DNA of 37,189 nucleotides from a virus: positions 1 to 37,189 of IMG/VR virus record IMGVR_UViG_3300020205_004135, one strand, 5' to 3'. The notes beneath the pieces are model-generated. The model ran no database searches. It saw only the letters and a list, made by a program, of their open reading frames with translations, and had not been told where the DNA came from. Position 1 is the stretch's first letter. Each line of letters begins with the position of its first letter. The position numbers and the translations under genes were made by a program. Of this stretch, positions 6,514 to 30,466 are shown one piece after another.

Positions 6514-6531
6514 GATTATAAAAAATAATAA

Positions 6532-6562
6532 AAAGTCTCAAAGAAATTTGAGACTTTTTTTT
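6532..6562 (+). terminator. Strong intrinsic terminator after the sheath gene
   Basis: Eleven-base perfect stem AAAGTCTCAAA (6532-6542) with TTTGAGACTTT (6547-6557), a GAAA tetraloop, and a continuing T run to 6561. Confidence 0.9.
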
Positions 6563-6611
6563 GTTAAACAAATTAGGAGTATTTAATATATATGTTAAAC
6601 AATATGTTATT

Positions 6612-8380: not shown

Positions 8381-9322
8381 ATGTCAGATAATAATGATAA
8401 AAAACCAATGTCGGAGGAGGATTACCTAAAAAGACATCTAAATGACCTAGAGACAGGTAAAAAAATAGCAGATGGGGATATTCCCTTTGTTGAGCAATCT
8501 GAATCAGCTAGAACTGGTGATTTGCAATTTTTTAATATGGATATCAGAGAATTACCTTGTGGTCAATTCTATCCAACTGGTACTCTATTTATGGTTAGAC
8601 CAGCTCAAGTAAAAGAAATTCAAGCTTATTCAATGGTTGATGATAATAACTTTTATGACATCGTTGAGAAGATGAATGATATGATGCAAGCATGTGTTCG
8701 TATTAAATATCCTGATGGTAAAGTTGCATCTTATTTGGAAATTAAAGACCAGGATAGATTATTTTTAGTTTTCTTAATTAGAGAGTTGACATTTCAACAA
8801 GGTAACTCATTAGCAGTTACTGCTAAGTGTGGATGTGGTGAGGATGTTAAGATTGAGTTAAATAGAAAATCATTTGTTTTTCATGAAATTGATGAAAAAT
8901 TAGAAAAGTTTTTCTCACAGAGTTCTAAAACTTATAATTTTAAAACAGTGAATGGTAAGAGTTTCGAACTTACCCCTCCAAATATTGGATTACAAAAAGC
9001 TTTCACTGACTATATTGTTAAAGAAAATAATGAAAAAAGAACGCCGAATTTATCATTTTTGAAAATTATTCCATTTATTATGTCTGGTAGAGTTACTATC
9101 ACTTATGATGGTATTAAAGCTAAGGTTAAAGAGTTTGAGGAAATTGATGATATTTCTTTTCAGTTTTTAAATGCTGCTGTTAATAAAATGACTTTTGGTC
9201 TGAAGGAATTAAAAGGTATTTGTGAGTGTGGTGAGGAGGTCCACACCGATATGCAGTTTCCCAACGGTGCCTCAGGTATTTTCGTTATTTCAGATGCCTT
9301 TGACGCATATATTAAAGAATAA
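8381..9322 (+). CDS. Baseplate hub protein, T4 gp26-like
   Basis: 313 residues. After a charged 45-residue N-terminus comes IRELPCGQFYPTG, then a helical region, and an F-L-x-x-L-R-E-L-T segment, a layout typical of the T4 gp26 baseplate-hub family of T4-like phages. Two separate C-x-C pairs (KCGCGE near 149-151 and ICECGE near 287-289) look like the halves of one zinc ribbon. The last 29 coding bases overlap the next gene in the +1 frame. Its position between the sheath and tube genes supports a tail-assembly role. The family call is from pattern memory, so moderate. A spliced tail assembly chaperone is the main alternative. Confidence 0.65.
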   Translation: MSDNNDKKPMSEEDYLKRHLNDLETGKKIADGDIPFVEQSESARTGDLQFFNMDIRELPCGQFYPTGTLFMVRPAQVKEIQAYSMVDDNNFYDIVEKMNDMMQACVRIKYPDGKVASYLEIKDQDRLFLVFLIRELTFQQGNSLAVTAKCGCGEDVKIELNRKSFVFHEIDEKLEKFFSQSSKTYNFKTVNGKSFELTPPNIGLQKAFTDYIVKENNEKRTPNLSFLKIIPFIMSGRVTITYDGIKAKVKEFEEIDDISFQFLNAAVNKMTFGLKELKGICECGEEVHTDMQFPNGASGIFVISDAFDAYIKE

Positions 9323-9545
9323 GCTTCAACTTCAAAAACACTTTCATCTACAAGAATGGGCAATTGATAATTGGCCATTCTGGATGTTGGAAGAGAATGT
9401 TAAACTTGTTAATGAGATTATTGAAGATGAGGAATCAAATCGTAAAAAGGGTGAGGAAGATCAATCCAAAGGAATGCCTGATTATGGTGGGATGATGAAA
9501 AATGCTTCGAGTATGGGAAATAATTTCAGTATGCCGAAATTCTAA
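9294..9545 (+). CDS. Small tail-assembly protein overlapping the hub gene
   Basis: 83 residues if started at the ATG at 9294, which lies 29 bases inside the previous gene; the frame is open upstream to about 9222. The core, QLQKHFHLQEWAIDNWPFWM, then LEENVKLVNEIIEDEE, is a Trp-rich helical segment followed by an acidic tail and a Gly/Met-rich end. Position and overlap fit either the gp51-like partner of a gp26-like hub protein or the frameshifted second part of a tail assembly chaperone. No Shine-Dalgarno sequence marks 9294, so reinitiation or +1 frameshifting is possible. It ends just before a terminator pair. Confidence 0.7.
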   Translation: MPLTHILKNKLQLQKHFHLQEWAIDNWPFWMLEENVKLVNEIIEDEESNRKKGEEDQSKGMPDYGGMMKNASSMGNNFSMPKF

Positions 9546-9549
9546 TTAT

Positions 9550-9575
9550 AAACCCACTTTTAAAGTGGGTTTTTT
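9550..9575 (+). terminator. Intrinsic terminator of the hub operon
   Basis: Arms AAACCCACTTT (9550-9560) and AAAGTGGGTTT (9562-9572) followed by a T run to 9575. It starts four bases after the stop codon of the previous gene. Confidence 0.85.
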
Positions 9576-9583
9576 AGTGCATA

Positions 9584-9616
9584 AAAAAACCACCAAATTA
9601 AATTTGGTGGTTTTTT
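9584..9616. terminator. Bidirectional terminator between convergent genes
   Basis: Perfect 16-base arms (9584-9599 and 9601-9616) around a single central base, with an A run on the left and a T run on the right. It would stop both the plus-strand hub genes and the minus-strand tube gene. Confidence 0.85.
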
Positions 9617-9633
9617 GTTTAATAAACTTTTTA

Positions 9634-10254
9634 TTAATATCCAGAAACAAGTGGGGGATTGATACCAAAATTTTGGTCAATGTATTCGTCAATGAAGTAA
9701 TCATAAACGAAATCTGCAACAGTGCTCTCAATGATATTACTAGAAGACCAGTCAAGTGAATAACCATTTAATTTAGTAATTTGTACGTTTTGGAATGTTA
9801 CTCTTCTTAAAACAACACCTTTTTTATCATGTTGATTTACAATAATAGTCCCGATGATATCAGATTTGTAGTGAAGTGATCCATTTTGAGAGTTAAATAC
9901 TAAATCAAACCAAGCTTTCAGACTTGCCCATGTTTGCATTGAGCCTCCATTACTAACATTTACTTGAAAAGGAATGGATAGAGTTCCGTCTGTTTTAGTC
10001 GGAGGAGCCATAAACATTCTAGTTGAGTATTTGAATCTTTGTGATTTTGCTGAAACATCTTGTTCAGTTAAATTAAGGTCAATTTTAGTTGCGTTTTGTA
10101 GCAATAAGATAGGATCTCTACCTTGCGCTTGTAAAATTACTGGTAAGATAAAAGTAATCTCAAAAAGATTTAAGTAAACTACTTCGTGTGGTTGTGTTCC
10201 TGGTCCACCTGGTGCTCCAGAGTTTGTAACCTGTGTAAAATGTGGTAAAGCCAT
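9634..10254 (-). CDS. gp19: Tail tube protein (T4 gp19-like)
   Basis: 206 residues. The pattern is that of the T4-like tail tube family: NLFEITFILP near the N-terminus, the assembly-loop region, KGVVLRRVTFQNVQI, then LDWSSSNIIESTVADFVYD near the C-terminus. T4 gp19 is 163 residues, so this is modestly longer. Hexamers would stack inside the sheath to form the conduit for DNA. The gene is alone on the minus strand between a bidirectional terminator and a 173-base divergent promoter region shared with the gp47 gene. A tube-initiator paralogue (gp48/gp54-like) is possible but less likely given the short, compact form. Confidence 0.85.
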   Translation of the reverse strand: MALPHFTQVTNSGAPGGPGTQPHEVVYLNLFEITFILPVILQAQGRDPILLLQNATKIDLNLTEQDVSAKSQRFKYSTRMFMAPPTKTDGTLSIPFQVNVSNGGSMQTWASLKAWFDLVFNSQNGSLHYKSDIIGTIIVNQHDKKGVVLRRVTFQNVQITKLNGYSLDWSSSNIIESTVADFVYDYFIDEYIDQNFGINPPLVSGY

Positions 10255-14205: not shown

Positions 14206-17200
14206 ATGTCTAATCATAAAAACTTAAAATTCTTCAATAAAGAAGGAGACTATTTGAACTTCAACTATAATGAAGGATATGAAAGGTTTGAGGGTGATAT
14301 ATTGTTTCATGAAAATTCAACCGATACATTTAAAACCTATGCTATTTACACACTTGAAAATATACCATCATTTGATTTTGAATCAATTGGTGAATTAACA
14401 ACAAAAAAGTTTCAATTATTTAATGAATTTGGACTTCATTTCTATGGTGGTAAATATTATGAACAAAAAATAGATAGAATTGAGCCGGTTAATAATGACC
14501 CTGAGTTTTATACTAAGTGGATATATGGTGGTGGATTTGAGACTAAGTTCCCTATTGGTACTTTAGTTAAATTTGATAGTATTGCATTTGAGTTTACAAA
14601 TCTTGATGAATCATATGTTGTTGTTGGGTCAAAAGTTGGAGCAATAATGATATTAAGTAAAATGGATAATGATACATTTGAATCATCATTTTTCTATCAA
14701 TATATTGAACCTGAATCCTATGTTGGTCTTAATATTAGTGGTGTTAATGCTTTTGGTGTTTATGATTATATTGATTCTCAGTATAGTGAGAGATTATCTA
14801 ATTGGAATGAACCAGACTTTTATGATAAATATTACCCGGGTAAAAAACTAAATGTTGTTGGTAGTAAGAAAAATGATGGTATATTAACTGTTAAGGACTT
14901 AGCTATAAATGACGCGACTCATTGGGAATATTTTGTGGATAAAGCTAATTTACCCGATAATTCGGATTTAATAGTGGAGGTTATAACAAGAACAGATGTG
15001 CCTTTGGTTTATAGTGGTGGTATTGATATAACTAGTCCGTTTAAATTAAATATTGATTTAAGTTACCCTCAAATTTTAAAACCAAATGTTGAATTTAAAA
15101 TTGTTGGATCTGTTAATAATACTATTTTCTATACAGTTTCTGATATGCCTGTTTTCAATACATTAAACAGTGTTACTTATTTTGAATTGGGGTCTCAAGT
15201 TTTATATAATAATAGAGTATATGAAAATTTACAATCATATACATATAGCTTTCAATCATCAACCGCTTATATAACTCCAGAAAATACATCTTATTGGACT
15301 AGTGAGCCAACTTACATAAAAGTAAATGAACAAACTTCTATAGAGAATGTTCTAAATGGTAAGATTTATTTAACAACGGATAGATATTATTATAGTTTTG
15401 GTTGGACATCATCTTCAGAAGCTTGTCTAGCAGCCACTGCTGAGAAGTATAATGCTGATTTAAATATATTTAATGTAGATTTATATTATCTAAATGGTAG
15501 TTTAAGAGCAGATCTTAAATATCCTTCTAATTATGCTAAAGTTAACTTTTATCACACACAAGTTGGTGCTACTTATTCAATTGGTGGGTTAAAACAAACT
15601 TATGAAAGACTTGTAGAGATTGAGGAACAATTAGACTATGAGTTGAATTATAACTACTCTCAAAATAAAAAAGTAAATGTAGTTTTTACAGATATTGATG
15701 AATTCGGAATCAAAATTACTATAAATAAAATGGTGTATGATGAGGAAGTTGCTTTATTGTATAGTGGATTAAATATAGATATGGAGAGAACCATTGATAG
15801 AACTTTAAGAAATTGGCTTTCTAGATGGCATCTTAAATTACACACATTGGGTATAGTTGTTGATTTGAAATATAGTGGTAATTTTACTTCTTTATTTTAT
15901 AATACTATTGTTTTAAAAACTACCTATCCTAATGTACCGATGGAGGTTAATAGAATTGAAGTTGGTACAACTGCTGATTTTTATGTTGAACATTCTAAGA
16001 TATTATTCACATCGATGGGTCCATATTTGAATATTAAGATAAATGATAAAAACTTTGATCAACAATCTATTTTTGATATAAATTCAAATGTTGATATACC
16101 CGCGACACTAATAGCTTGGTATGATACTAATTCTGAGTTACTTTTAACATATGGTATAACATCTTCTGTTGCGAATAACCTATTGAAATTAAATTTAACG
16201 TCTTTAGAATATAGATTGGATTATACAATTAATACTGGTAAATTAAATTATCCAGGTGTTAATGATTATAAATCAACCAAGTATCTTTTGGGTAACATCG
16301 GAACATTGGTTGCTTCAAATGAAATAGTCTTACCATCAACATCAGATTTTAGTTTTGAAGATGTTGGATTTTCAACTGGTATGGCTTTTACAGTTAATAA
16401 TACCGTTTATCCATATGTTAATCAAGACTATACAATACAATTTTTAGATCCACATGTATTAAATATAAGTTATCAAGGCCCTTTTTGGGGATTGAGTCAA
16501 AGTCCTTGTGATTCCTCTGGTTTCATTACTTTAGCTTTTGATATGGGTTTTGGTCAAACAGCTTGTAATGGCCCGATTAGTCCAACTGGATCTGGTGGTC
16601 CATTTAATATGAGTATGTTTAATAGTAATCAATTTGCTATTACTTTTAATTCCAATAACTATAATTTGAATACTTATCAGAGTTCAGATAATTTAATTGA
16701 TATAGAATATGTTCAACTTACAAATTGTGTTTATGGTTTTGGTGATGATGTTGTTGTTTTAGATGCTTTACATGGATATATTATATCAAATATTACACTT
16801 CTTGGTAACACTCAGAGTATTGAAATGGAATTCAACACTTTTAATAATTATATTTATTGCCTATCTGAAAAATATATGTGGGTAATTGACCCAACAAGTA
16901 ATACTCTTATTTCCAAGATTTTATTTAACCCATCTGCTATAGCTTATGATATGGAAGTTAACCCTAATAATGGTGATGTCTATGTTAGTTATCAAAACTT
17001 GACACATGTTGATATTTGGGCTTATAATAATATGAGTAGTGTTAGTACTGATTCTATTTCAACATCTGGATATGGATATCCAGGGGCTATGGTTTTTAAT
17101 GACTTTGAAGGTGATATGTATATAACTTGTACTAACAATGCTGTTATTAGAGTTAATGGTGGTCCAAATATTAACTTTGTTAGTAATCCAAATAGGACAA

Positions 17201-19983
17201 TATCTACTATTTATGGAATTCCTGGATCGACACACTCTATTTTTTATGAGCCGGTTTATGAGGCTATTTACGTTTATGGATCTTCAACTCTTTGGAAAAT
17301 AGATAATGGTATAACACAGTCTGTTTCGATTTCAACATCTGGATTTAATGATATTATATTCAATAACCTTACTGGTGAGATGAATATATCTGACAGTTCT
17401 TTAGACTTTTCAAGATTGAGTTTGTCTACTAATGCTGTTTCTCAATCTAATATTGCTAATTATGGATTTTTAGGTATTAATCAATACGATGGTGATATTT
17501 ACTTATCATCTCAGAATTTTAATAATATAATTGTTATTAAAGGTGTTAATGGTCAAGTTGTTCATACCGAGCCAATGGTTGCTCCTACTGGTAGAATGGT
17601 TTATAATCCTGAGAGAAAATCTATGTGGGTTATACAACCATCAACAAATTCTATTATAGAAATAGCTTCTGAGTTGAATTTATCTATAACTGAAACATCT
17701 ACATCAGGTTTAAGTGTGGGTGAAGGGTTATATGGTACATTGGATTCAAATTACATACCACATGAAAGTATTTGGATAAAAACTAGAGAATACTTTAGAA
17801 GACCGAGGGAAAATTTTGAAGGTGATATTCCTATTAATTTATATTGGAGATGGATGACGGATGAAGTCCCTGATTTCTTTTTATATGACTTCACTGGAGA
17901 GCAATTAACAAGTACTGGATCTTATGCTTATACTGGTGATAAACCTTTAGAGAATGTTGTGTTAAATACTTCACCTAATAAAGATTTAAATAAAGTTAGT
18001 TATCCTGAATATCAACAAACCGTATTTGATAAAATTAACTATGAGTTAAGTTATATAGATGATGTTAATGATATTAGCGTTGAGGCTAAATCATTAGAGT
18101 TGTTTATTGGATATAGATCTACTGTAGAAGGTTCTGTTAGAAACGTTTTACAGTTATATAAAAGGGAAGATATAGAATTTGAAATAGTTTCTGATAATTC
18201 GACATACTTGAAGTTTGAGACACTTACTAACAATTCTGATAAAAGGGGTCAGATTTCAATAAATGCTGATTCTGTTGAGAATTTTACTGGTAGAGGGTTA
18301 AAAGAAGGTCAGCATATCACGGTATATTTAACAGATGATAGTAATATTAAAAACCAGTACGTTTCATCAAATAATGCAATTATATTAAAAATAAGAAGTG
18401 TGTTTACTAAAATATTAATTGTCGATTTCTTTAATATTGATTTTGACTTTATAGAAACTGAATATACATCAATATCTGATTATCCATCTTATAGTAAAAA
18501 TACATATTTAAAGACTAGATTTAAGGTAAGAGATAGAGAAATAGGGAGATTTATAACATATGGTCAATCTGAAGAAGAAGATATTAGGTTTAAATATGAA
18601 TTAGGTAATATAGGTAAATTAATAAAACCGGATGAGGTATTCATATTCAGTGAATATGATGTTAATGAAGGTGGTATTGATTGGATGATTCTAAATAGAA
18701 AGAGAAAAGAGATGTTGATGAATCGAAATTTGATTTATCCTTATGTTGGGTCTTATTTATCTATAATAAATGCTATAAATTACTTTGGTTATAATGATTT
18801 ACAATTGAATGAGTATTATAGAAATAAGGAAATAACCAATGGTGTAAAAGGTAGTAATTTTGGTAAATTATTCAAAGTTGAAATACCTGATATATTTGAT
18901 AATACAGTTAAAGGTTGGAATGATAAAGACTTTTTGAAGAACTATTTACCTAATGATAATTTTGAAGAAACAAATATGTTTAATCTTACATATTTCATTA
19001 CTGATAAAGAAGGTAATTATATTTTAAATTACAGCATTGATGAGATTATTATTAAGTTACAAGGTCTTAAATATTGGTTAAAAAGAAATATAATTCCGTT
19101 GACTCATAAAATAATGGATATCTCTGGAAAAGCTTATTTTAATGGTGGTACATCTATACAACATAATGTTTATGATACTAGAATTATTAATATTAGAGAA
19201 GATATGACTCCTGTTACTTTTAAATTAAATGAGTCTTATTTATACCCTGTTAATAGCGGATCAACTGTTTATAACTGTGTTTTAGATTTTTATAGTATTA
19301 TCGAGAATATAGGGGCTGATAAAGAGGATAGAATGGTTAATACAAGTTTTGGATTTAAATTAGTTTCTCCTCCAAAGCCTTATAATGATTTAAAAGCTAA
19401 TATGAAGATGCCTGACATTTATGATGTTAAAATAAGAACATATAAAGTGTATAAAGAGTGGGCACCATTTGTAACTTATTCTAAAGGTGATAAAATTTAT
19501 TATTATGATAAGTTATATGAATCAACTAAAGATGGTAATAAAATTAATAATCCTAAAAAATATGAAAATATTGAAAGTTGGAATGTTGGTTCTGTGTATT
19601 CTATCGCTACTGTTGTTCAATATGAAAGAGAATATTATACATATAGTGGACTGGGTGATCCTTATTCAACTTTGAGTCCAAATTTTGATCCTAATAATTG
19701 GTTGAATATAACAGATTGGAGATTTATTGATTTTGAACCTGTTCAGTATATTACAGAGTTTAGAACTGGGGATGATTTGAGACCTTTTAACTTTACAATT
19801 GATTCTAATATAGACCCATTCCTTGTTATTGAGATAACTTCTCATAGTGGATATGGTCAAGTATACATGGATAAAAAGAACTATCAGATAAAGGGTCTTA
19901 AAGACTTAACAGAACCATATACATATATTGATACGATTGGTCCTTTTCAACCAATAATTCCTATTGAATTACAGACAAATTAA
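14206..19983 (+). CDS. Giant tail/baseplate protein with beta-propeller-like region
   Basis: 1925 residues. The N-terminus (FFNKEGDYLNFNYNEGYERF, then GDILFHENSTDTFKTYAIYT) resembles, from memory, large baseplate proteins of T4-like phages. Residues about 120-830 are beta-rich. Residues about 840-1150 hold repeated NHL/YVTN-like blades (YCLSEKYMWVIDPTSNTLI, MEVNPNNGDVYVSYQNLTHV, INQYDGDIYLSSQNFNNII, YNPERKSMWVIQPSTNSII), suggesting an inserted beta-propeller that may bind a surface glycan. The C-terminal third (about 1150-1925) returns to a mixed structural region (GSYLSIINAINYFGY, LKYWLKRNIIPLTHKIMDIS). It has its own promoter motif and a bidirectional terminator. A gp7- or gp10-type wedge role is plausible, not shown. 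Confidence 0.8.
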   Translation: MSNHKNLKFFNKEGDYLNFNYNEGYERFEGDILFHENSTDTFKTYAIYTLENIPSFDFESIGELTTKKFQLFNEFGLHFYGGKYYEQKIDRIEPVNNDPEFYTKWIYGGGFETKFPIGTLVKFDSIAFEFTNLDESYVVVGSKVGAIMILSKMDNDTFESSFFYQYIEPESYVGLNISGVNAFGVYDYIDSQYSERLSNWNEPDFYDKYYPGKKLNVVGSKKNDGILTVKDLAINDATHWEYFVDKANLPDNSDLIVEVITRTDVPLVYSGGIDITSPFKLNIDLSYPQILKPNVEFKIVGSVNNTIFYTVSDMPVFNTLNSVTYFELGSQVLYNNRVYENLQSYTYSFQSSTAYITPENTSYWTSEPTYIKVNEQTSIENVLNGKIYLTTDRYYYSFGWTSSSEACLAATAEKYNADLNIFNVDLYYLNGSLRADLKYPSNYAKVNFYHTQVGATYSIGGLKQTYERLVEIEEQLDYELNYNYSQNKKVNVVFTDIDEFGIKITINKMVYDEEVALLYSGLNIDMERTIDRTLRNWLSRWHLKLHTLGIVVDLKYSGNFTSLFYNTIVLKTTYPNVPMEVNRIEVGTTADFYVEHSKILFTSMGPYLNIKINDKNFDQQSIFDINSNVDIPATLIAWYDTNSELLLTYGITSSVANNLLKLNLTSLEYRLDYTINTGKLNYPGVNDYKSTKYLLGNIGTLVASNEIVLPSTSDFSFEDVGFSTGMAFTVNNTVYPYVNQDYTIQFLDPHVLNISYQGPFWGLSQSPCDSSGFITLAFDMGFGQTACNGPISPTGSGGPFNMSMFNSNQFAITFNSNNYNLNTYQSSDNLIDIEYVQLTNCVYGFGDDVVVLDALHGYIISNITLLGNTQSIEMEFNTFNNYIYCLSEKYMWVIDPTSNTLISKILFNPSAIAYDMEVNPNNGDVYVSYQNLTHVDIWAYNNMSSVSTDSISTSGYGYPGAMVFNDFEGDMYITCTNNAVIRVNGGPNINFVSNPNRTISTIYGIPGSTHSIFYEPVYEAIYVYGSSTLWKIDNGITQSVSISTSGFNDIIFNNLTGEMNISDSSLDFSRLSLSTNAVSQSNIANYGFLGINQYDGDIYLSSQNFNNIIVIKGVNGQVVHTEPMVAPTGRMVYNPERKSMWVIQPSTNSIIEIASELNLSITETSTSGLSVGEGLYGTLDSNYIPHESIWIKTREYFRRPRENFEGDIPINLYWRWMTDEVPDFFLYDFTGEQLTSTGSYAYTGDKPLENVVLNTSPNKDLNKVSYPEYQQTVFDKINYELSYIDDVNDISVEAKSLELFIGYRSTVEGSVRNVLQLYKREDIEFEIVSDNSTYLKFETLTNNSDKRGQISINADSVENFTGRGLKEGQHITVYLTDDSNIKNQYVSSNNAIILKIRSVFTKILIVDFFNIDFDFIETEYTSISDYPSYSKNTYLKTRFKVRDREIGRFITYGQSEEEDIRFKYELGNIGKLIKPDEVFIFSEYDVNEGGIDWMILNRKRKEMLMNRNLIYPYVGSYLSIINAINYFGYNDLQLNEYYRNKEITNGVKGSNFGKLFKVEIPDIFDNTVKGWNDKDFLKNYLPNDNFEETNMFNLTYFITDKEGNYILNYSIDEIIIKLQGLKYWLKRNIIPLTHKIMDISGKAYFNGGTSIQHNVYDTRIINIREDMTPVTFKLNESYLYPVNSGSTVYNCVLDFYSIIENIGADKEDRMVNTSFGFKLVSPPKPYNDLKANMKMPDIYDVKIRTYKVYKEWAPFVTYSKGDKIYYYDKLYESTKDGNKINNPKKYENIESWNVGSVYSIATVVQYEREYYTYSGLGDPYSTLSPNFDPNNWLNITDWRFIDFEPVQYITEFRTGDDLRPFNFTIDSNIDPFLVIEITSHSGYGQVYMDKKNYQIKGLKDLTEPYTYIDTIGPFQPIIPIELQTN

Positions 19984-21896: not shown

Positions 21897-24800
21897 TTAA
21901 GATCCAATAGGCTTTGGTGTTGTAATTTGATTCTTTGTCATTAGTGATATATATTCATCAATCGTAGAAGTTGATCTGTTTATATTTTCTAATAAAAAAA
22001 CAGCTCTTTCCAATTGTTGTGAAACATAGTATAAATGATTTTTTCTTTTCAAATCAGATGGTACTTCTTTATCTTTTTTCTTTATTGGTTCGCCATCATC
22101 AGTTTGTCCAAATTTTCTTCTAGTACTTGGTCTTTCTGTTGATACTGTTGGCATAGGAGCAGCTCCTGTTAATCCTTTTGTTAATCCACCTAATTGATTT
22201 AAACTTTTCAAGTTTAATAGTCTCATTGCTTTTCCTAACTTCATCAGAGATGTCGCCATTGCATCATATCCTTTAGCAAGTGTTATCATTCTCCTAGCTA
22301 TTTTTGAAATAGGGTCTGTTCCAAGAAGATCGTCAGCAAATGATGATAATTTATTGAGAAATCCTCCTTTTTCCGATTCAGCTAACTTATTAACAATGTA
22401 ATTAAAATCTAAAATATTTTGACCAACTTTTCTCATATAGAATGGGTCTATCTTTACTGCAAAAAAGTTTTTACCGTCTGATAGTATTCTAGCGACTCTC
22501 ACCATCCTTTCAGCCACATTGGATATAGGGTCATATTTATAATATGTATAAATTCCTGGTGTGGTATCCAACCATTTTGTAAGTAATGCGAATTTCCCAA
22601 TCAATCCAGAATTAGCACTTGTGTTTGATTTACCTATTATAGCATCTGACCATTTTTGTAAATTTGATGAAATTTCAAAGAACCTTTTACTAGAAAATAA
22701 AATCCAAGCTACTTGTGTAATCTGACTTGCTACATCTTTAATTAAACTCAAATCTCTTCTAGTTTTTACAGTTTTTGAAGTACTTGATGCACCAAATCCC
22801 AAAAATCCAGAATCTTTAGTTGTTACTGTTTTCTCACTTGTTAGCATTTTATCTAATTGTAAACCCAATTTAGCAAATCCTAAAATATTTGGTGATAGAT
22901 TTTTAATAAAATTTGTTGGAATAGATGCTGTAAAGTATTTTTTACTCACCCATATTGTTTTGGCTACACCACTCATTAATTTTATTGTCGCGTTTAATAT
23001 AGACGCAGATGCATTAAGTGAATATATTGTATAGCCTCTTGATTCTATGTTGTCAAATATATCCATAAATCCACTAACTGCTTTTGAAACTCCCTTAGCC
23101 CAATCTGATGTTGGGTAAGCACCCCATGCATCAGGTCCTATTCCAGAAAATGATGTAGCTGCTGAAACTAACGCCCTTGAAATAACGACAATTGCATTTG
23201 ACATGTCTTTTATTACCGTGTCTCCACTTGTAAACCAACCAGTGTCTTCATGTAATGCTTGAAATACGGGAGTAAAAGCACCTAAAGCTGCCCCTACACC
23301 TCTACCCCATTGTTTTGATGGGTATTTTCCTTCTTCAAATGGTGCGGTATTTTCAGCAAATATTTTAGCTGATTCTATTATACCTCTAGAAACAACATTT
23401 ATTGCTTTTGCAAAATCCTCCGGTCCTACACCTCCACCACTACTAAGAAACCCGGGAGCATTATCAATCAACATTTGGTAAACTGGTGCAAATGCCCCAA
23501 TTGCTAGACCAACTCCTTTAGCCCATTTAACGGGAGGTCCGTTTACGAATGCTGCTTTGTTAATTGCGAAGTACCAAGCTGCTTCTATTATACCTCCAGA
23601 AACAATTTTTATTGCTTCTGCAAACTCCTTGGGTCCTACACCACCTCCGGTACTGAAAAGTCCGGGAGCATTATTAACCAACATTTGATAAACTGGTGCA
23701 AATGCCCCTAGTGCGATTCCTATACCTTTTGCCCACTCCTCTGTTGGTCCTTGTTTGTAAATTCCTTTTTGTAAAATATACGAAACATCCACTATTGTCC
23801 ATGCTATCTGTTTCAACATTTTACGACCAGCGTCAAATGGATTTGTACCCCCGAAAAATTCAACGACCGCTCCAACAGCACCCACTGCTCCTAGTAAAAT
23901 GATTAATGGGGTGAATACGCTGAATAGTAACGCGACTGATGCTGACCATCCTGTTAAACCTGGTAGATCATACTTTCCTTTTTGTAAAATATCAGAAACC
24001 TCTACAATTGTTTTAGCTAATATTAATACTATACCTAAACCAGCATAGAAGAACGGATTAAGTGCGTTAAATCCTAATAGAATAGCCGCTGTTCCAAAAG
24101 TTGCAAAAGCGGCAGAAACTCCTAGATTCCATTCGAGAGTTGGATACTTTTTATAATTACCAGCTCCTAATATATATGATGTTGCTAATATGGTACCGGA
24201 AAGTAATAATATTAAACCTAATCCAGCATAGAAGAATGGATTAAGTGCTTGTGTTCCTAAAAGTAAAGCAGCTATTCCAAATACTCCTAAAGCAGCAGCG
24301 ACTCCTAGAGCCCATGAGACAGTTGGATACTTTTTATAACTACCAGCTGCTAATATATGTGATGTTGCCATTATTACAACAGCCACTATTAAAATAACCA
24401 CACCTCCTTTTATCGCATCTGTGACTCCAAGTCCTATAATCTTAAATATCTTCATTATTATACCAAAAACAACTAAAGTAAGAGCGACGTATAATAACCA
24501 TCTCCAATCTGGATACTTTTTATAATTACCCTTATTTAATATATTAGATGATTGCGCTAAAGTCGCGGCTATTATTAAAATTACCAAACCTCCTTTTATC
24601 GCATCTGTTACACCAATTCCTATAATCTTAAATATCTTCATTACTATGACGAAAACAAGTGCTACTACCGCTATTGCGATTCCAAGTACCAATATTTTAA
24701 GTATCGTCATGAATCCTAACCCATCTATACTTTTTTGGAATTTAGAGAATATCAAAGCCGCTCCTGTTATAGCAGCTGCTATTAATACGAAAAATACTGG

Positions 24801-26378
24801 GAGCATAATAACTGTCTTCCAATCAATACCTTTCATTATTCTAACAGCAACTGCTGCTATTATAGCTATAACTCCGAGTGCTGCTCCTATGACTAAAACT
24901 TTCAATATTGTCATAAATCCCAGTGCGTCAATATCTTTTTTAAACTTATTAAGTATAAGTGCGGATGCACCTATTGATAGGGACATTAAAGCAAAGAATA
25001 CTGGAATTTTAGGGATATCAGCCCATTTCATTTCCCCGACCGCTTTAACAATTTGTTTCATACCGAATGATAATATAACAAATACGACAGCAATTGCGAT
25101 AGCTGTTAGTAGTTGCATAAATCCAACTGGTTGTATTTTAGCAAATATAAATGATGATAATGTTATTGATAGAGCCATTGCTGGTAGTATCAAGGGAAGA
25201 ACTATTGCTGCTAATATTGCTTTTTGTGGTGGTATCTCACCTAAAACTTTTATTAATGAGCTAATACCAAAAGCAGCCACTGTGAATATTGCAGCAATTG
25301 CGATTGCTGAAAGTGCTTGCATAAATCCAATCGGTTGAACTCTACTTAATATCATAGATGATAGCCAAATACCAACTGATATAGCTAACATTATAATCGG
25401 TAACATAACAGCAACTCCTACAAGTTTACCTATACTCATTCCTTTTTGTTTTCCCCCAAATCCTTTAGCTTTTACTTCGGTTTCTTCGGTTAATGCATGT
25501 ATCAAACCTTTAATTCCACTAGCGACCATCATAAACATACCGGATATTAATATAGATGTTATAATCTGTCCTATTGATAATGGTCTAACACCTGATAATA
25601 TTTTTGATGATACTAGTATACCTAAGGACATACCTGCCATTAATAGTGGTAGGAATACGGCAGTTGCTATTAATTTACCAATACTTAACTTTTTAGTTTT
25701 TACTTTACCCATTCCTTCTGCCTCAATCGTTGTCTCACTTTCGAGAGCACTAATCATACTTGCTATTGTTGGTCCAACAAAGTAGAATAATAAAGCTATT
25801 GCAGCAGACGTTAAAACTTGTCCAATTGATATAGGTGATACTTTTGATAAAAAGAACGATGATATCATCACACCAGCTGACATTATAACCATTGCTAATG
25901 CAGCAAATGCTGCCTTTTTAGGGCTTAAATCTAATTTAGCAACCCTCTCAAATGCTATTGCTACTAAAACTATAGCAATTGAAAGACCAACAACTGAAAG
26001 AAAGTCTATTTTTCCTACTAATTTAAATGCTAGACCAATCGCTAATACAGCCACTGCTATTAATAGAATTGTTGTTAGACCCTTTTTAATACTACTTTGT
26101 TTTTTAGGATCATCTCCCTCTATAGCTTCGGTTTTTTTATCACTTGATTTTTGTTTTTGTAATTCAATAATTGTTTGTTGATTTTTCAAAATCTCTTGTG
26201 TATCAACTTTTATAGATTTTATATCAGTACTAATCTGCTCTAAAGAACCCCCGAAATCACCACTGGTTAAAGCTTTGGTTGTATCACTACCACCCTCTTT
26301 TTTATTATTCAGAGCGTCTACTAGAGCTTCTAAACCATCTCCGATATTACCTAATGCTTTTAATAATTGCTTATCCAT
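21897..26378 (-). CDS. Tape-measure-like giant hydrophobic repeat protein
   Basis: 1493 residues. Residues 1-95 are soluble with a short coiled-coil-like stretch (ISTDIKSIKVDTQEILKNQQ). From about 103 to 850 there are well over a dozen hydrophobic helices in a repeated pattern, punctuated by G-x-Y-K-K-Y-P-x-x-x-W elements. Around 880-1100 come 70-residue repeats (VGPKEFAEAI ... GAFAPVYQML). The C-terminus ends in a helix (ERAVFLLENINRSTSTIDEY). Length, hydrophobic repeats and position as first gene of a tail operon fit a tail tape measure that sets tail length and may enter the host membrane. T4 gp29 is only about 590 residues. A non-tape-measure membrane protein cannot be ruled out. Confidence 0.7.
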   Translation of the reverse strand: MDKQLLKALGNIGDGLEALVDALNNKKEGGSDTTKALTSGDFGGSLEQISTDIKSIKVDTQEILKNQQTIIELQKQKSSDKKTEAIEGDDPKKQSSIKKGLTTILLIAVAVLAIGLAFKLVGKIDFLSVVGLSIAIVLVAIAFERVAKLDLSPKKAAFAALAMVIMSAGVMISSFFLSKVSPISIGQVLTSAAIALLFYFVGPTIASMISALESETTIEAEGMGKVKTKKLSIGKLIATAVFLPLLMAGMSLGILVSSKILSGVRPLSIGQIITSILISGMFMMVASGIKGLIHALTEETEVKAKGFGGKQKGMSIGKLVGVAVMLPIIMLAISVGIWLSSMILSRVQPIGFMQALSAIAIAAIFTVAAFGISSLIKVLGEIPPQKAILAAIVLPLILPAMALSITLSSFIFAKIQPVGFMQLLTAIAIAVVFVILSFGMKQIVKAVGEMKWADIPKIPVFFALMSLSIGASALILNKFKKDIDALGFMTILKVLVIGAALGVIAIIAAVAVRIMKGIDWKTVIMLPVFFVLIAAAITGAALIFSKFQKSIDGLGFMTILKILVLGIAIAVVALVFVIVMKIFKIIGIGVTDAIKGGLVILIIAATLAQSSNILNKGNYKKYPDWRWLLYVALTLVVFGIIMKIFKIIGLGVTDAIKGGVVILIVAVVIMATSHILAAGSYKKYPTVSWALGVAAALGVFGIAALLLGTQALNPFFYAGLGLILLLSGTILATSYILGAGNYKKYPTLEWNLGVSAAFATFGTAAILLGFNALNPFFYAGLGIVLILAKTIVEVSDILQKGKYDLPGLTGWSASVALLFSVFTPLIILLGAVGAVGAVVEFFGGTNPFDAGRKMLKQIAWTIVDVSYILQKGIYKQGPTEEWAKGIGIALGAFAPVYQMLVNNAPGLFSTGGGVGPKEFAEAIKIVSGGIIEAAWYFAINKAAFVNGPPVKWAKGVGLAIGAFAPVYQMLIDNAPGFLSSGGGVGPEDFAKAINVVSRGIIESAKIFAENTAPFEEGKYPSKQWGRGVGAALGAFTPVFQALHEDTGWFTSGDTVIKDMSNAIVVISRALVSAATSFSGIGPDAWGAYPTSDWAKGVSKAVSGFMDIFDNIESRGYTIYSLNASASILNATIKLMSGVAKTIWVSKKYFTASIPTNFIKNLSPNILGFAKLGLQLDKMLTSEKTVTTKDSGFLGFGASSTSKTVKTRRDLSLIKDVASQITQVAWILFSSKRFFEISSNLQKWSDAIIGKSNTSANSGLIGKFALLTKWLDTTPGIYTYYKYDPISNVAERMVRVARILSDGKNFFAVKIDPFYMRKVGQNILDFNYIVNKLAESEKGGFLNKLSSFADDLLGTDPISKIARRMITLAKGYDAMATSLMKLGKAMRLLNLKSLNQLGGLTKGLTGAAPMPTVSTERPSTRRKFGQTDDGEPIKKKDKEVPSDLKRKNHLYYVSQQLERAVFLLENINRSTSTIDEYISLMTKNQITTPKPIGS

Positions 26379-27281: not shown

Positions 27282-28610
27282 ATGAGTAAGTTAATAACTT
27301 TAAATGGTCTAAATGATGACCAGATATTAAATGACCTTTTCGATGACGAATTGGTTGTACTTGAGGATATTCAAGGTAGTAAAATTTGGGTTCAATGGAA
27401 TGGTAGAGAATTTGAAATTAGACCTAAATCTATTTCAAGTGAGCCTATTAATTTGATTGACTTGGCAATGCAGAACTATTATAATCCAGTTATTGGATTT
27501 TTTAATAGTTTGGATGAAAGAGTAAAGGGTCTTCTTAATAAAAAATGGTGGTATGGATTTGAGTTCTTTCCGGATGAACAACCAGCAAATATAGAATACA
27601 ATAGAGTCCCTAAAAATCAGTTAGTTTTATCTTCTATAAATAAATCTGGTAAATATGAATTTTCAATTGATGAGTTGGGTGAGTATTCTAGACTTTTTGA
27701 TGTTGATTTGATTCCTGTTATTTATCAAGGTAAATTAACAGAGCCTATGAAAGAGGCTATTAAATACTTTATTAATACATCAGTAGGTGATCTGGACTAT
27801 ATTTTTGGTGATAAGTCATTTTCTTTCTTTTTCTATAAAGTTTTAAATCCAAAAGTTGAAAATTCTTTTTTAATGGATGATGATTTTCAAAAAAATATGG
27901 AAAAATTAATTATTAAAAGTAAAAACAGAGATATATCATTTGAGTTATTAAACCCTTTATATAATAGGTTAAGTGAGTCTAATAGTACAGAATTTGTAGA
28001 GATATATACACTAATTTTAGTTAATTTCTTAAATTTCTGCCAATCGGTTAATTTGACAGATATTAAATTAAAAGGTGATAAAAAAGACGAAATTTATATT
28101 TATCTAATTTCTAAATTATTTAATATCTATGTTAATGAAGTTAAACAAGACCTTTTAAATTTTGATTTTGTTGTACCTGAGTTTTTTGATAAGGATAAAT
28201 TTAAAATTAATACTGAGTTAATTAAAAATAAATTAACTAAAGAGTATATTGAAGAAGACGAGAAGTTGGAATATATTTTCAAAGTTGTATTGGGGTCTTT
28301 CAACCGGAGAAGAAAAAAACCTATTGGTATATTTACTGAAAATACAGTAAAGTTATTTAATATTTTTGTTGACAGTGTTGATGGTTATATAAGTAAGTAT
28401 TTAAATAAAATGCATGAGATTGAATTAGGGAGAGCTGGTCTTTTAGACTTTGGAGATTTCTTTGAGATTCAATATGATACTGATGCTGAGGGTCAAGTTT
28501 ATCCGGATGTTTATGATGAATTTGAAAAAGGTGTTGATAATGATAAAAAGAAAAAGGGTAAAGGTGGTAAAATGATATTACCAACAGGTGATGAAAAAGA
28601 GATTAAATAA
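27282..28610 (+). CDS. Possible degenerate RNA/DNA ligase-fold protein
   Basis: 442 residues. IWVQWNGREFEIRPKSI (about 35-51), WWYGFEFFPDE (about 88-98), IEYNRVPKNQLVLSSI and a later VDLIPVIYQGKL resemble the order of nucleotidyltransferase motifs in T4-type RNA ligases (K-x-D/N-G, a Y/F-G-E-F element, the P-x-x-x-x-G segment). However, the catalytic lysine position appears to be Gln (QWNG), and no clear motif V (K-x-K) follows. Residues 190-400 are helical and unrecognised; the tail is Lys/Gly-rich. It has a promoter motif upstream and a terminator overlapping its stop. Similar proteins occur, by memory, in other T4-like phages. The ligase relation is tentative. Confidence 0.8.
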   Translation: MSKLITLNGLNDDQILNDLFDDELVVLEDIQGSKIWVQWNGREFEIRPKSISSEPINLIDLAMQNYYNPVIGFFNSLDERVKGLLNKKWWYGFEFFPDEQPANIEYNRVPKNQLVLSSINKSGKYEFSIDELGEYSRLFDVDLIPVIYQGKLTEPMKEAIKYFINTSVGDLDYIFGDKSFSFFFYKVLNPKVENSFLMDDDFQKNMEKLIIKSKNRDISFELLNPLYNRLSESNSTEFVEIYTLILVNFLNFCQSVNLTDIKLKGDKKDEIYIYLISKLFNIYVNEVKQDLLNFDFVVPEFFDKDKFKINTELIKNKLTKEYIEEDEKLEYIFKVVLGSFNRRRKKPIGIFTENTVKLFNIFVDSVDGYISKYLNKMHEIELGRAGLLDFGDFFEIQYDTDAEGQVYPDVYDEFEKGVDNDKKKKGKGGKMILPTGDEKEIK

Positions 28611-28622
28611 TCTCTTTTTTAT
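28594..28622 (+). terminator. Terminator overlapping the stop codon
   Basis: Arms AAAAAGAGATT (28594-28604) and AATCTCTTTTT (28609-28619) with loop AAAT; the stop codon TAA (28608-28610) lies in the loop and right arm. A T run continues the right arm. Confidence 0.75.
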
Positions 28623-28666
28623 TTTCAATAAATAGAAACCATGACTCGATTTTTGACTATAAAAGT

Positions 28667-29899
28667 ATGGATATTACAAATCAAAGTCAAATAACTTCTT
28701 ACAGGAAAAACATACAAAAAAGGCTAGATAAGAAAACAAAGTCTCTTCAGTTTTTACCTAAGTGTTTTGATGAATTTCAAAATATTAAAACAATAATCTA
28801 TAAGGACCAGAAATTAAAGACTTCATATCTAATCGATATAATTCACAATTTAATATTAAAGTATTATTTTAAAAAAGATAATAAATATACAATAAACGCA
28901 ACTGTATTAAAAGAAAGATATGGTTATCTTTATAATTATTATATAAAGTATTTAATTGAGAAAAAAATACTTTATATGGTTTGTAATTATAAAAAAGGTG
29001 TTACTTCAAGAATTTACTCATTAGATATATCAATATTTAAACAAAGAATAAAAAGAGTACATAACGAGGATAAAGTATTAATAAAAAAATACAAAAAGAA
29101 GGTTTTTAATAGTATAGATTTTATTGATGAGAATGTCTCTCTTATTAAACCCGATATCCGTGAAAAATTAATATCTGATTTATTTTCTATTGATGTTGAA
29201 TATGAAAGAAGTATCTTCTTTTTAGATTGTCTTAAAAAAGAAGATGTTGATATTTATAATCGAAATGTTTATTCAGTTGAAAGTATAAATGACAAACACA
29301 TATTCTATCACTTTGATAATTATGGTAGACTACATACAAATTTTACAATTCTTAAATCTTTTATTAGAAAAAATTGTCTATTAATTGATGGTGAAGAAAC
29401 CTGTGAACTTGATATAAAAAATAGCCAACCACTTTTTTTATGTAAGTTAATAAATGATACACAAACCGTTTGGGTCGATAAAAAAGAATATGAATTTTTT
29501 AGGGATTTGACAATTAATGGTAATTTTTATCAATATCTTATGCAAGTTACTGGTCAGAAAGATAGAAAGTTAGTTAAAGAGTTTACTTATAAAGTTCTTT
29601 TTGGTAGAAATGCTTCAAATAGTAAAGCGGATAAGGCTTTCAGTAACATATTCCCAACTATACATCATTTTATAAAATTATATAAAAGAGAATATGGTAA
29701 TTATAAGGTTTTGGCACATGACTTACAGAGAGCTGAATCTAATCTCATTTATAATAAAATTATTAATAAAATTATGATTTTACACCCTGAGATTAAAATA
29801 GTTACTGTACATGATAGTATAATATTTGCAAAAAAATACAGAGATGTTGTTACTGCTATTTTTGATTATGAGATATCACAAGAATTTTCATTAAAGTGA
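28667..29899 (+). CDS. Protein with family-A polymerase-like palm
   Basis: 410 residues. Residues about 50-130 look like a winged-helix unit (TINATVLKERYGYLYNYYIK, YKKGVTSRIYSL). The C-terminal half carries, in order, YGRLHTNFT (219-227), CELDIKNSQP with D249 and Q254, R300-x3-K304-x8-FG313 (DRKLVKEFTYKVLFG), HDLQRAESNLIYNKI (351-365), and VTVHDSII with H382-D383-S384. These match the GRL element, motif A, the O-helix (motif B) and motif C of the Pol I / T7 RNA polymerase fold. There is no exonuclease domain and it is much shorter than Pol I (about 900). Activity as a polymerase, and DNA or RNA preference, are inferred. A replication initiator or primase role is possible. Confidence 0.75.
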   Translation: MDITNQSQITSYRKNIQKRLDKKTKSLQFLPKCFDEFQNIKTIIYKDQKLKTSYLIDIIHNLILKYYFKKDNKYTINATVLKERYGYLYNYYIKYLIEKKILYMVCNYKKGVTSRIYSLDISIFKQRIKRVHNEDKVLIKKYKKKVFNSIDFIDENVSLIKPDIREKLISDLFSIDVEYERSIFFLDCLKKEDVDIYNRNVYSVESINDKHIFYHFDNYGRLHTNFTILKSFIRKNCLLIDGEETCELDIKNSQPLFLCKLINDTQTVWVDKKEYEFFRDLTINGNFYQYLMQVTGQKDRKLVKEFTYKVLFGRNASNSKADKAFSNIFPTIHHFIKLYKREYGNYKVLAHDLQRAESNLIYNKIINKIMILHPEIKIVTVHDSIIFAKKYRDVVTAIFDYEISQEFSLK

Positions 29900-29947
29900 T
29901 AGATTTAATTTAATATATAATGAGTGATAGATTTAAATAACCCAAAA

Positions 29948-30466
29948 ATGTCTTTTATACTATTATCATCTGATAAATTGGATGATATGGTTTCTGTTTT
30001 ATATGCTAAAAATTATCAAATAATTCCAATACAGGGATATTATCAAGGTCAATATGAGGATTGTGTTATAGCTTTTTCAAATATTGATAATGATGAATTG
30101 AGAAAAGATTTGGTCTTTTTACTAAATCATTTTCATCAAGATAGTTGTGTTATAAAATATTTGGGAGAGACTGGTGTTAAGAAACTATTTAGAGATGGTT
30201 CTGAGAAAATAATGGATATTTCACTTTATAATACAGATTCTGATAATGTATCATATTTATATAATGGATTAAGCTTTTCTTTTATCGAGCAACAAAGATA
30301 TTGGAGACCGACTAAAAAAGAAGATTTTAGAGTCGGTATGTTAGTTGAATATTTAAATAATAATAAGTGGTATCAGAAAACAGTAGAAGATCCTAATTCT
30401 GAGTGGGATGATATTTGGAAGCTTTTAATTAAATATGATAAAGTTAGAGTAGCTTCTTTTAATTAA
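29948..30466 (+). CDS. Conserved phage protein of unknown function
   Basis: 172 residues from the ATG at 29948; a GTG at 29924 in the same frame would add eight residues. The layout is alpha/beta: MSFILLSSDKLDDMVSVLY, then IPIQGYYQGQYEDCVIAFSN, an acidic middle, then YLYNGLSFSFIEQQRYWRPT and VGMLVEYLNNNKWYQKTV. The pattern resembles a hypothetical protein found in several T4-like phages; I know no function for it. It follows the polymerase-like gene by about 50 bases and meets the minus-strand methyltransferase gene tail to tail with a 4-base overlap at shared stop codons. Confidence 0.75.
   Translation: MSFILLSSDKLDDMVSVLYAKNYQIIPIQGYYQGQYEDCVIAFSNIDNDELRKDLVFLLNHFHQDSCVIKYLGETGVKKLFRDGSEKIMDISLYNTDSDNVSYLYNGLSFSFIEQQRYWRPTKKEDFRVGMLVEYLNNNKWYQKTVEDPNSEWDDIWKLLIKYDKVRVASFN

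What the first reader, a model, noticed from the sequence alone, without database searches (positions are those of the whole stretch)
28667..29899. Stand-alone minimal family-A polymerase-like protein
The order GRLHT, D249-x4-Q-P, R300-x3-K304-x8-F-G313 and H382-D383-S384 reproduces the GRL element and motifs A, B and C of Pol I and T7 RNA polymerase in 410 residues, behind a winged-helix-like domain. T4-like phages replicate with a family-B enzyme and transcribe with host RNA polymerase, so an extra tiny polymerase (primase, repair enzyme, replication initiator or RNA polymerase) would be new. HDS in motif C is the T7 RNAP form.
Basis: partly seen in the sequence, partly recalled or inferred. 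Interest (0 to 1): 0.75.

Follow-up and report, generated by a model that had tools for sequence, protein, structure and literature searches.

The report
Extra mini DNA-polymerase of giant phages
The gene encodes a real, very small cousin of DNA polymerase I with an added DNA-binding domain, carried by the largest known phages alongside their main polymerase; small second polymerases of this general kind were already described in 2024, but this branch, which is also scattered through Bacteroidota mobile elements, is unannotated and untested.

Summary
The 410-aa product of window 28667-29899 folds with high confidence (pLDDT 89) into an A-family polymerase palm and fingers (T7 DNA polymerase Z 13.0; Pol I and Pol theta similar). 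Its catalytic residues are invariant: D249, K304 and D383 in 43 of 43 homologues down to ~20% identity; H382 in 40 of 43. The N-terminus is a winged helix whose nearest solved folds are replication initiators (plasmid RepA, ORC1), at borderline Z 7-8. The window is from a huge contractile phage; full-length relatives are the 634-735 kb 'Mahaphages', which also encode a split family-B polymerase and DnaB, so this enzyme is an extra. Bacterial homologues occur sporadically in Bacteroidota (14 of 395 genomes), often beside tyrosine integrases. Prior art weakens the claim that it 'would be new': TV-Pol (2008), CcPol-MP primases (2020) and especially divPolA2 (2024), a second exonuclease-less PolA in other phages, homologous here by profile comparison (E 3e-15). 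HDS in motif C does not point to an RNA polymerase, as relatives share it; an invariant Gln at the sugar-gate position favours dNTPs. Best guess: an auxiliary, initiator-like primase-polymerase or DNA polymerase. New variant of a known kind, interest 0.45.

The parts
28667..29899 (+). minimal A-family polymerase gene, 410 aa
28736..29065 (+). N-terminal winged-helix domain (residues ~24-133)
   Evidence: separate fold pLDDT 86.7; best VIA rows 4pql, 4pt7 (initiator), ORC1 winged helix and 5kbj (Rep-DNA), Z 7-8
29306..29338 (+). hairpin with invariant R221 (GRLHT; residues 214-224), template-strand Arg by analogy with TV-Pol/Pol I
   Evidence: R221 43/43
29393..29431 (+). motif A (residues 243-255, D249 with Q254-P255)
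   Evidence: D249, S253, Q254, P255 43/43
29564..29605 (+). motif B / fingers O-like helix (residues 300-313: R300, K304, Y308, F312, G313)
   Evidence: K304 43/43, F312 F or Y 43/43; helix 300-312 in the model
29723..29740 (+). LQ..ES element (residues 353-358)
   Evidence: Q354 and E357 43/43; cf. LQ..DS in divPolA2
29801..29830 (+). motif C (residues 379-388: H382, D383, S384)
   Evidence: D383 43/43, H382 40/43
28590..28623 (+). 15-bp A/U-rich hairpin with T-rich 3' side, terminator-like, at the end of the upstream gene and before the polymerase gene
   Evidence: fold z -5.4; the consensus terminator scan, which asks for 3 G-C pairs, did not list it
27282..28610 (+). conserved upstream neighbour, 442 aa, unknown
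   Evidence: 63-84% identical and upstream in 45 viral contigs and 2 huge phages; no family, no PDB match
29924..30466 (+). conserved downstream neighbour, 180 aa, unknown
   Evidence: 38-76% identical in the same loci; no family

Best explanation
The gene encodes an auxiliary, minimal A-family nucleic-acid polymerase without exonuclease domains. SHOWN by computation: an A-family palm and fingers with an intact two-Asp metal site (D249, D383), the RxxxK fingers lysine (K304) and the template-strand Arg (R221), preceded by a winged-helix domain; it is an extra enzyme, because full-length relatives also carry a family-B polymerase. INFERRED: the winged helix binds a double-stranded DNA site or a partner and delivers the polymerase core there. 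The core then makes DNA from dNTPs on a template. It most likely starts or restarts strands at particular sites (primase-polymerase or replication-initiator role, like CcPol-MP of SCC elements) in phages and Bacteroidota elements whose bulk synthesis is done by another polymerase. Confidence by step: A-family fold and intact active site 0.95; makes nucleic acid 0.9; DNA rather than RNA 0.7; initiator-type priming role rather than repair 0.45.
For: Fold: pLDDT 89.4, pTM 0.85; all 50 VIA rows shown are A-family DNA polymerases, best T7 DNA polymerase Z 13.0 over 248 residues at 3.7 A. Active-site invariance over 43 divergent sequences. Winged helix: the top VIA rows are plasmid initiators and ORC1 (Z 7-8). 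Extra enzyme: PolB matches in W01-W04 and six viral contigs, DnaB in all 10 records tested, one copy of this gene per genome. Context: in LR745206, LR756502 and G003 the order is this gene, then the PolB N-half 11-15 kb on, then DnaB 5 kb on, all on one strand, with thyA between in LR745206 and LR756502. In LR756511 the homologue overlaps by 4 nt a second A-family polymerase gene. Bacterial homologues sit by tyrosine integrases and excisionase-like genes. A characterised enzyme of similar design, CcPol-MP, primes DNA (PMC7581432). Q254 at motif-A Asp+5, where Pol I has its sugar-gate Glu and T7 RNAP a Gly (own knowledge), favours dNTPs.
Against: No biochemistry. Some of these phages already encode a Toprim primase-like protein, so a priming role may be redundant. 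No D5-type helicase or OB-fold partner was identified next to the phage gene; the partner search was by family models only. The Hymenobacter plasmid has a separate annotated replication initiation protein. In LR756501, G001 and G002 the gene lies more than 60 kb from PolB-N and DnaB. Winged-helix Z of 7-8 is within the range given for common arrangements.
Confidence: 0.5

Rival explanations
1. Auxiliary repair or gap-filling/translesion DNA polymerase. It extends primers at damaged or recombining DNA; the winged helix gives general DNA binding.
For: Extra to PolB; no proofreading domain; minimal A-family enzymes without exonuclease (nu, theta) do this in eukaryotes and Pol theta is a top fold match; Yutin et al. 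propose repair for divPolA2 (PMC11348598).
Against: No nuclease, ligase or recombination gene is consistently adjacent; an initiator-like winged helix is unusual for repair polymerases; homologues in small integrative elements.
Confidence: 0.28
2. A single-subunit RNA polymerase that transcribes a set of phage genes; the winged helix reads the promoter.
For: H382-D383-S384 as in T7 RNAP; mitochondrial RNA polymerases appear among Foldseek hits; no RNAP beta subunit found in 10 phage records; the divPolA2 authors leave RNAP open (PMC11348598).
Against: DNA polymerases rank above RNA polymerases; invariant Gln (43/43) instead of a small residue at motif-A Asp+5, and F312 at the position that is Tyr in T7 RNAP (positions by motif spacing); scattered bacterial mobile elements have no obvious need for one; no PF00940 match.
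Confidence: 0.14
3. The polymerase core has become a regulatory or structural DNA-binding protein without catalysis.
For: Very small core; winged helix; tail sheath and tail tube genes lie elsewhere in the same window.
Against: Both catalytic Asp, the fingers Lys and the template Arg are 43/43 invariant down to about 20% identity, which is not expected of a dead enzyme.
Confidence: 0.05

Closest known systems
divPolA2 of barbaviruses and other phages (Yutin et al. 2024, PMC11348598); PHROG 4756; includes ICP1 GP100
   Same: About 420 aa, palm and fingers with A, B, C motifs ending HDS, no exonuclease, N-terminal globular domain, second to a regular polymerase; profile-profile match prob 98.5%, E 3.2e-15 over 209 columns.
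   Different: Separate clade; motif A is D-x4-H-P rather than D-I-x-N-S-Q-P; the match does not extend over the N-terminal domain; P0001 does not match PHROG 4756. Its authors report no similarity for the N-terminal domain, here a winged helix.
TV-Pol family (Iyer et al. 2008, PMC2579912)
   Same: Minimal A-family core with invariant hairpin Arg, two Asp and RxxxK; extra N-terminal domain; mobile elements including Bacteroidetes and a cyanophage.
   Different: No D5 helicase link seen in the phages; no significant match to the Ma-LMM01 protein that I take to be its TV-Pol; TV-Pol N-domain described as all-helical.
CcPol-MP / PolA-SSB primases of SCC elements (PMC7581432, PMC10061031)
   Same: Exonuclease-less A-family polymerase of mobile elements, proposed model for priming.
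   Different: CcPol is close enough to Pol I to be annotated PolA; needs an OB-fold partner and has a helicase in the operon; neither seen here.
DNA polymerase I / T7 DNA polymerase (PF00476)
   Same: Fold of residues ~150-409 (Z 12-13), motif spacing.
   Different: No PF00476 match in the query, in the listed matches of its 43-member family or in most of these phages; no exonuclease domains; short thumb; added winged helix.
UniProt A0A8D9FR19 'Putative DNA polymerase I [uncultured marine phage]'
   Same: Same family: 44% identity, TM 0.94.
   Different: A single database annotation; no family model was matched.

Membership tests
A-family polymerase superfamily (fold level) | palm plus fingers fold with motifs A, B, C | tested here: met
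   Z 13.0 to T7 DNAP, 248 aligned; motifs invariant
DNA polymerase I family PF00476 | match to the Pfam model | tested here: not met
   no match at E<=10 for the query; not among the listed matches of 43 members
T7-like RNA polymerase PF00940 | match to the Pfam model | tested here: not met
T7-like RNA polymerase PF00940 | small residue at the sugar-selecting position (motif-A Asp+5) and Tyr in the fingers helix | tested here: inconclusive
   Q254 43/43, F312 38/43 with Tyr 5/43; residue mapping is by motif spacing, not a residue-level superposition
divPolA2 (PHROG 4756) | sequence homology of the catalytic core | tested here: met
   hhalign prob 98.5%, E 3.2e-15
divPolA2 (PHROG 4756) | falls inside the divPolA2 clade | tested here: inconclusive
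   the 9 divPolA2 rows and the 41 family rows are separated by one 100% branch in a quick tree rooted there by choice: sister group or separate lineage
divPolA2 (PHROG 4756) | second polymerase beside a regular one, no 3' exonuclease | tested here: met
   PolB in W01-W04, G001-G006; model has no exonuclease domain
TV-Pol | hairpin Arg, two catalytic Asp, fingers RxxxK | tested here: met
   R221, D249, D383, K304 43/43; R300 is R 29, K 13, Y 1
TV-Pol | conserved Asp in the fingers | tested here: inconclusive
   the region has G-x-x-Y288 and no invariant Asp, but the equivalent position could not be fixed
TV-Pol | sequence relation to a TV-Pol member | tested here: inconclusive
   no significant match to Ma-LMM01 MAP_030, whose identity as TV-Pol is my reading; CcPol and Sputnik V13 not compared
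PolA-SSB primase (CcPol-MP) | OB-fold partner encoded next to the polymerase | not tested
   neighbours 27282-28610 and 29924-30466 match no family; not folded
Replication-initiator winged helix (RepA_N, ORC1) | winged-helix fold | tested here: met
Replication-initiator winged helix (RepA_N, ORC1) | homology to initiators / origin binding | tested here: inconclusive
   top rows are initiators but Z 7-8 and Foldseek E>=0.05; no iteron-like array found by the polymerase gene

The most novel reading that the evidence does not exclude
A new class of initiator-polymerase: one 400-aa protein that recognises an origin through a RepA/ORC-like winged helix and itself starts DNA synthesis there with an A-family core, needing neither a DnaG nor an AEP primase, used by the largest known phages and by a scattered family of Bacteroidota mobile elements.
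Probability: 0.22. Interest if true: 0.8.

Novelty: new variant of a known kind. Interest (0 to 1): 0.45.

Why it matters
It shows that the largest known phages (634-735 kb) carry, besides PolB, a second minimal A-family polymerase shared with Bacteroidota mobile elements and related to one in ICP1- and barbavirus-type phages. The query matches none of the Pfam, NCBIfam or PHROG models searched, and its relatives in annotated records are labelled 'hypothetical protein'. A 410-aa protein with a high-confidence model and invariant active site is easy to test, so the open question about TV-Pol and divPolA2 enzymes (primase, repair polymerase or RNA polymerase?) becomes directly testable, and the winged helix gives a concrete handle on where it acts.

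Tried and rejected
Sequence-only routes to known families: Pfam, PHROG, NCBIfam and PDB gave nothing useful for the query, and profiles A1 and A2 against the PDB gave only chance hits. hhalign of A2 against two single PolA proteins gave no match; the link to Pol I rests on structure and motifs. Idea that the protein is the sole Rep of the Hymenobacter plasmid: rejected, the plasmid has its own annotated replication initiation protein. Idea that it is the phage's only DNA polymerase: rejected. Idea that the phage lacks a primase and so needs this as one: weakened by Toprim primase-like proteins; PF01807 gave no hit over its cut-off. Multi-subunit RNAP in these phages: PF00562 found in none of 10 records, which does not show absence in fragments. 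Iterons around the gene: only isolated short repeats.

Full report
OBSERVATION. The ORF at 28667-29899 on the + strand is 410 aa with an ATG start. The listed motifs are present at the stated residues; only the spacing K304-x8-F-G is off by one (K304-x7-F312-G313). No Pfam, NCBIfam or meaningful PHROG family matches.

RELATIVES. A scan of viral contigs returned 45 loci at 53-71% identity, most over the full length, on contigs up to 476 kb. In the phage collection the only strong matches are uncultured huge phages: LR745206 (634,780 bp), LR756502 (642,428), LR756501/503 (735,411), LR756504 (636,363) and LR756511 (595,163), at 32-66% identity. Al-Shayeb et al. report 634, 636, 642 and 735 kb as their largest complete genomes, placed in the Mahaphage clade and predicted to infect Bacteroidetes (PMC7162821); I match the records to that paper by length. 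One genome-contig scan returned 23 loci, mostly Bacteroidota, with Ignavibacteriota, Verrucomicrobiota and Planctomycetota. A sample of 395 genomes of the phylum of Pedobacter locus L061 had the family in 14, of which two were already known members: a sporadic distribution. The gene is single-copy in 10 of 10 phage records tested.

CONSERVATION. Among 28 phage sequences D249, K304, H382 and D383 are invariant. Among 43, including bacterial homologues at ~17-27% identity, ten residues are invariant: R221, D249, S253, Q254, P255, Y288, K304, Q354, E357, D383. H382 is 40/43 (Phe otherwise), S384 37/43 (Ala or Cys otherwise).

STRUCTURE. AlphaFold2 on the 43-row alignment gave mean pLDDT 89.4, pTM 0.85. 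Foldseek's significant PDB hits are Plasmodium apicoplast DNA polymerase (E 4.6e-5), followed at weaker E-values by mitochondrial RNA polymerase, Taq, Pol theta and Bst. VIA-align 2 gives T7 DNA polymerase Z 13.0 (3.7 A, 248 residues), then Pol theta, apicoplast polymerase, Bst and Klenow at Z 12-13; 181 chains have Z>=8. About 245 residues align, roughly the stretch 150-409. Residues 1-158 folded alone (pLDDT 86.7) give a winged helix. Its best VIA rows are 4pql (Z 8.0), 4pt7 'Structure of initiator' (7.9), yeast ORC1 in several complexes (7.1-7.6), 5kbj 'Rep-DNA complex' (7.2) and archaeal Orc2 (6.9). The Z values are borderline and Foldseek alone finds nothing significant, so I claim the winged-helix fold and treat the initiator resemblance as a lead.

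WHICH POLYMERASE. By motif spacing Q254 is motif-A Asp+5, the position of Pol I Glu710 (sugar gate) and T7 RNAP Gly542, and F312 is the position of Pol I Tyr766 / T7 RNAP Tyr639 (numbers from my own knowledge; not superposed residue by residue). A bulky invariant residue at the gate favours dNTPs. HDS in motif C is shared by all divPolA2 rows but one (HDA), so it is a trait of this wider group and not a sign of RNA polymerase.

THE PHAGE ALREADY HAS A REPLICASE. Family-B polymerase matches occur in LR745206, LR756502, LR756501, LR756504 and in six viral contigs that carry the gene, in two separate genes where both halves were read (see Noticed in passing). The window itself is a 37-kb fragment and does not contain them. 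DnaB helicase is in all 10 records tested; Toprim primase-like proteins are found in several; a thymidylate synthase is seen. PF00476 occurs only in LR756511, which lacks a PF00136 match, and in the Vibrio phage. In LR756511 the homologue (L053 7599-8762) overlaps by 4 nt a 428-aa PF00476 polymerase (8759-10045), an arrangement typical of co-translated partners.

NEIGHBOURHOOD. The 442-aa gene upstream and the 180-aa gene downstream are retained in the 45 viral contigs and two huge phages but not next to the more distant homologues L051-L053. A strong A/U-rich hairpin with a T-rich 3' side lies between the upstream gene and this one, so the gene probably starts its own transcription unit. In LR745206, LR756502 and G003 the order is polymerase gene, then 11-15 kb on the PolB N-half, then 5 kb on DnaB, all on one strand; in G004 and G005 PolB-N is also 16-17 kb away on the same strand, but in G001, G002 and LR756501 both PolB-N and DnaB are over 60 kb away. 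Ten of 23 bacterial loci carry a homologous ~400-aa protein with tyrosine-recombinase signature residues and seven a small excisionase-like helix-turn-helix protein (identified by eye). On a 35-kb Hymenobacter plasmid the gene coexists with a separate replication initiation protein.

KNOWN KINDS. TV-Pol was defined in 2008 as a minimal superfamily-A core in transposons and viruses, predicted to prime and polymerise (PMC2579912). CcPol, a member from SCC elements, is a DNA polymerase that primes de novo with its partner MP (PMC7581432), and related PolA-SSB pairs are widespread in Bacillota (PMC10061031). divPolA2, described in 2024, is a second PolA in barbaviruses and other phages, lacking exonuclease and with an unrelated N-terminal domain; the authors suggest repair or RNA polymerase (PMC11348598). 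I recovered that group starting from a Vibrio phage homologue (PHROG 4756; 239 records including ICP1 and 114 Rheinheimera phages). Profile comparison with the present family gives prob 98.5%, E 3.2e-15 over the catalytic core. A quick tree of the core separates the two groups by one fully supported branch; within the present family the phage sequences other than LR756511 group together, with 'bacterium UBA1459' L054 (a 7.6 kb contig that also has the window's M28-like neighbour gene, so perhaps phage). So this is a sister lineage of divPolA2 or close to it, not a lone novelty.

VERDICT. Observation confirmed; polymerase interpretation supported at the level of fold and active site; the claim of unprecedented novelty not supported; function inferred. 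I rate it a new variant of a known kind: distinct motif A (D-I-x-N-S-Q-P), an initiator-like winged helix, and distribution in the largest phages and Bacteroidota elements.

Noticed in passing
L088 10804-12345 vs L089 2572-3999 (LR745206); L090/L091 (LR756502); L096/L097 (G001); also L092/L093, L094/L095: The family-B DNA polymerase of these huge phages is encoded as two separate genes: one with motif A (DFASLYP), one with motifs B and C (KLVLNGSYG, Y[GA]DTDS), over 100 kb apart, in several genomes, with the break in the fingers and no intein seen by eye.
   Followed up: partly
L053 7599-8762 and 8759-10045 (LR756511): Two different minimal A-family polymerase genes overlap by 4 nt in a 595-kb phage that has no PF00136 match: a possible heterodimer.
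   Followed up: partly
L119 4356-6023 (Vibrio phage ICP1 GP100): A hypothetical protein of the well-studied phage ICP1 belongs to the same wider group of minimal A-family polymerases.
   Followed up: partly
window 27282-28610: The upstream neighbour (442 aa) is better conserved than the polymerase (63-84%) and matches no family or PDB sequence; by eye it has EDIQGSKIW and FEFFP stretches that recall nucleotidyltransferase/ligase motifs.
   Followed up: partly
window 28590-28623: A/U-rich 15-bp hairpin with T-rich 3' side, z -5.4, terminator-like for an AT-rich genome.
   Followed up: partly
window 29895-29936: Exact 14-nt direct repeat AGTGATAGATTTAA, 28 nt apart, across the stop codon of the polymerase and the start of the next gene.
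   Followed up: no
window 14206-19983 and 21897-26378: Two very large genes (1925 and 1493 aa) on opposite strands with no PHROG or Pfam match.
   Followed up: no
window 2545-8300: A very long tail sheath protein (1322 aa) followed by an HNH/homing endonuclease gene.
   Followed up: no
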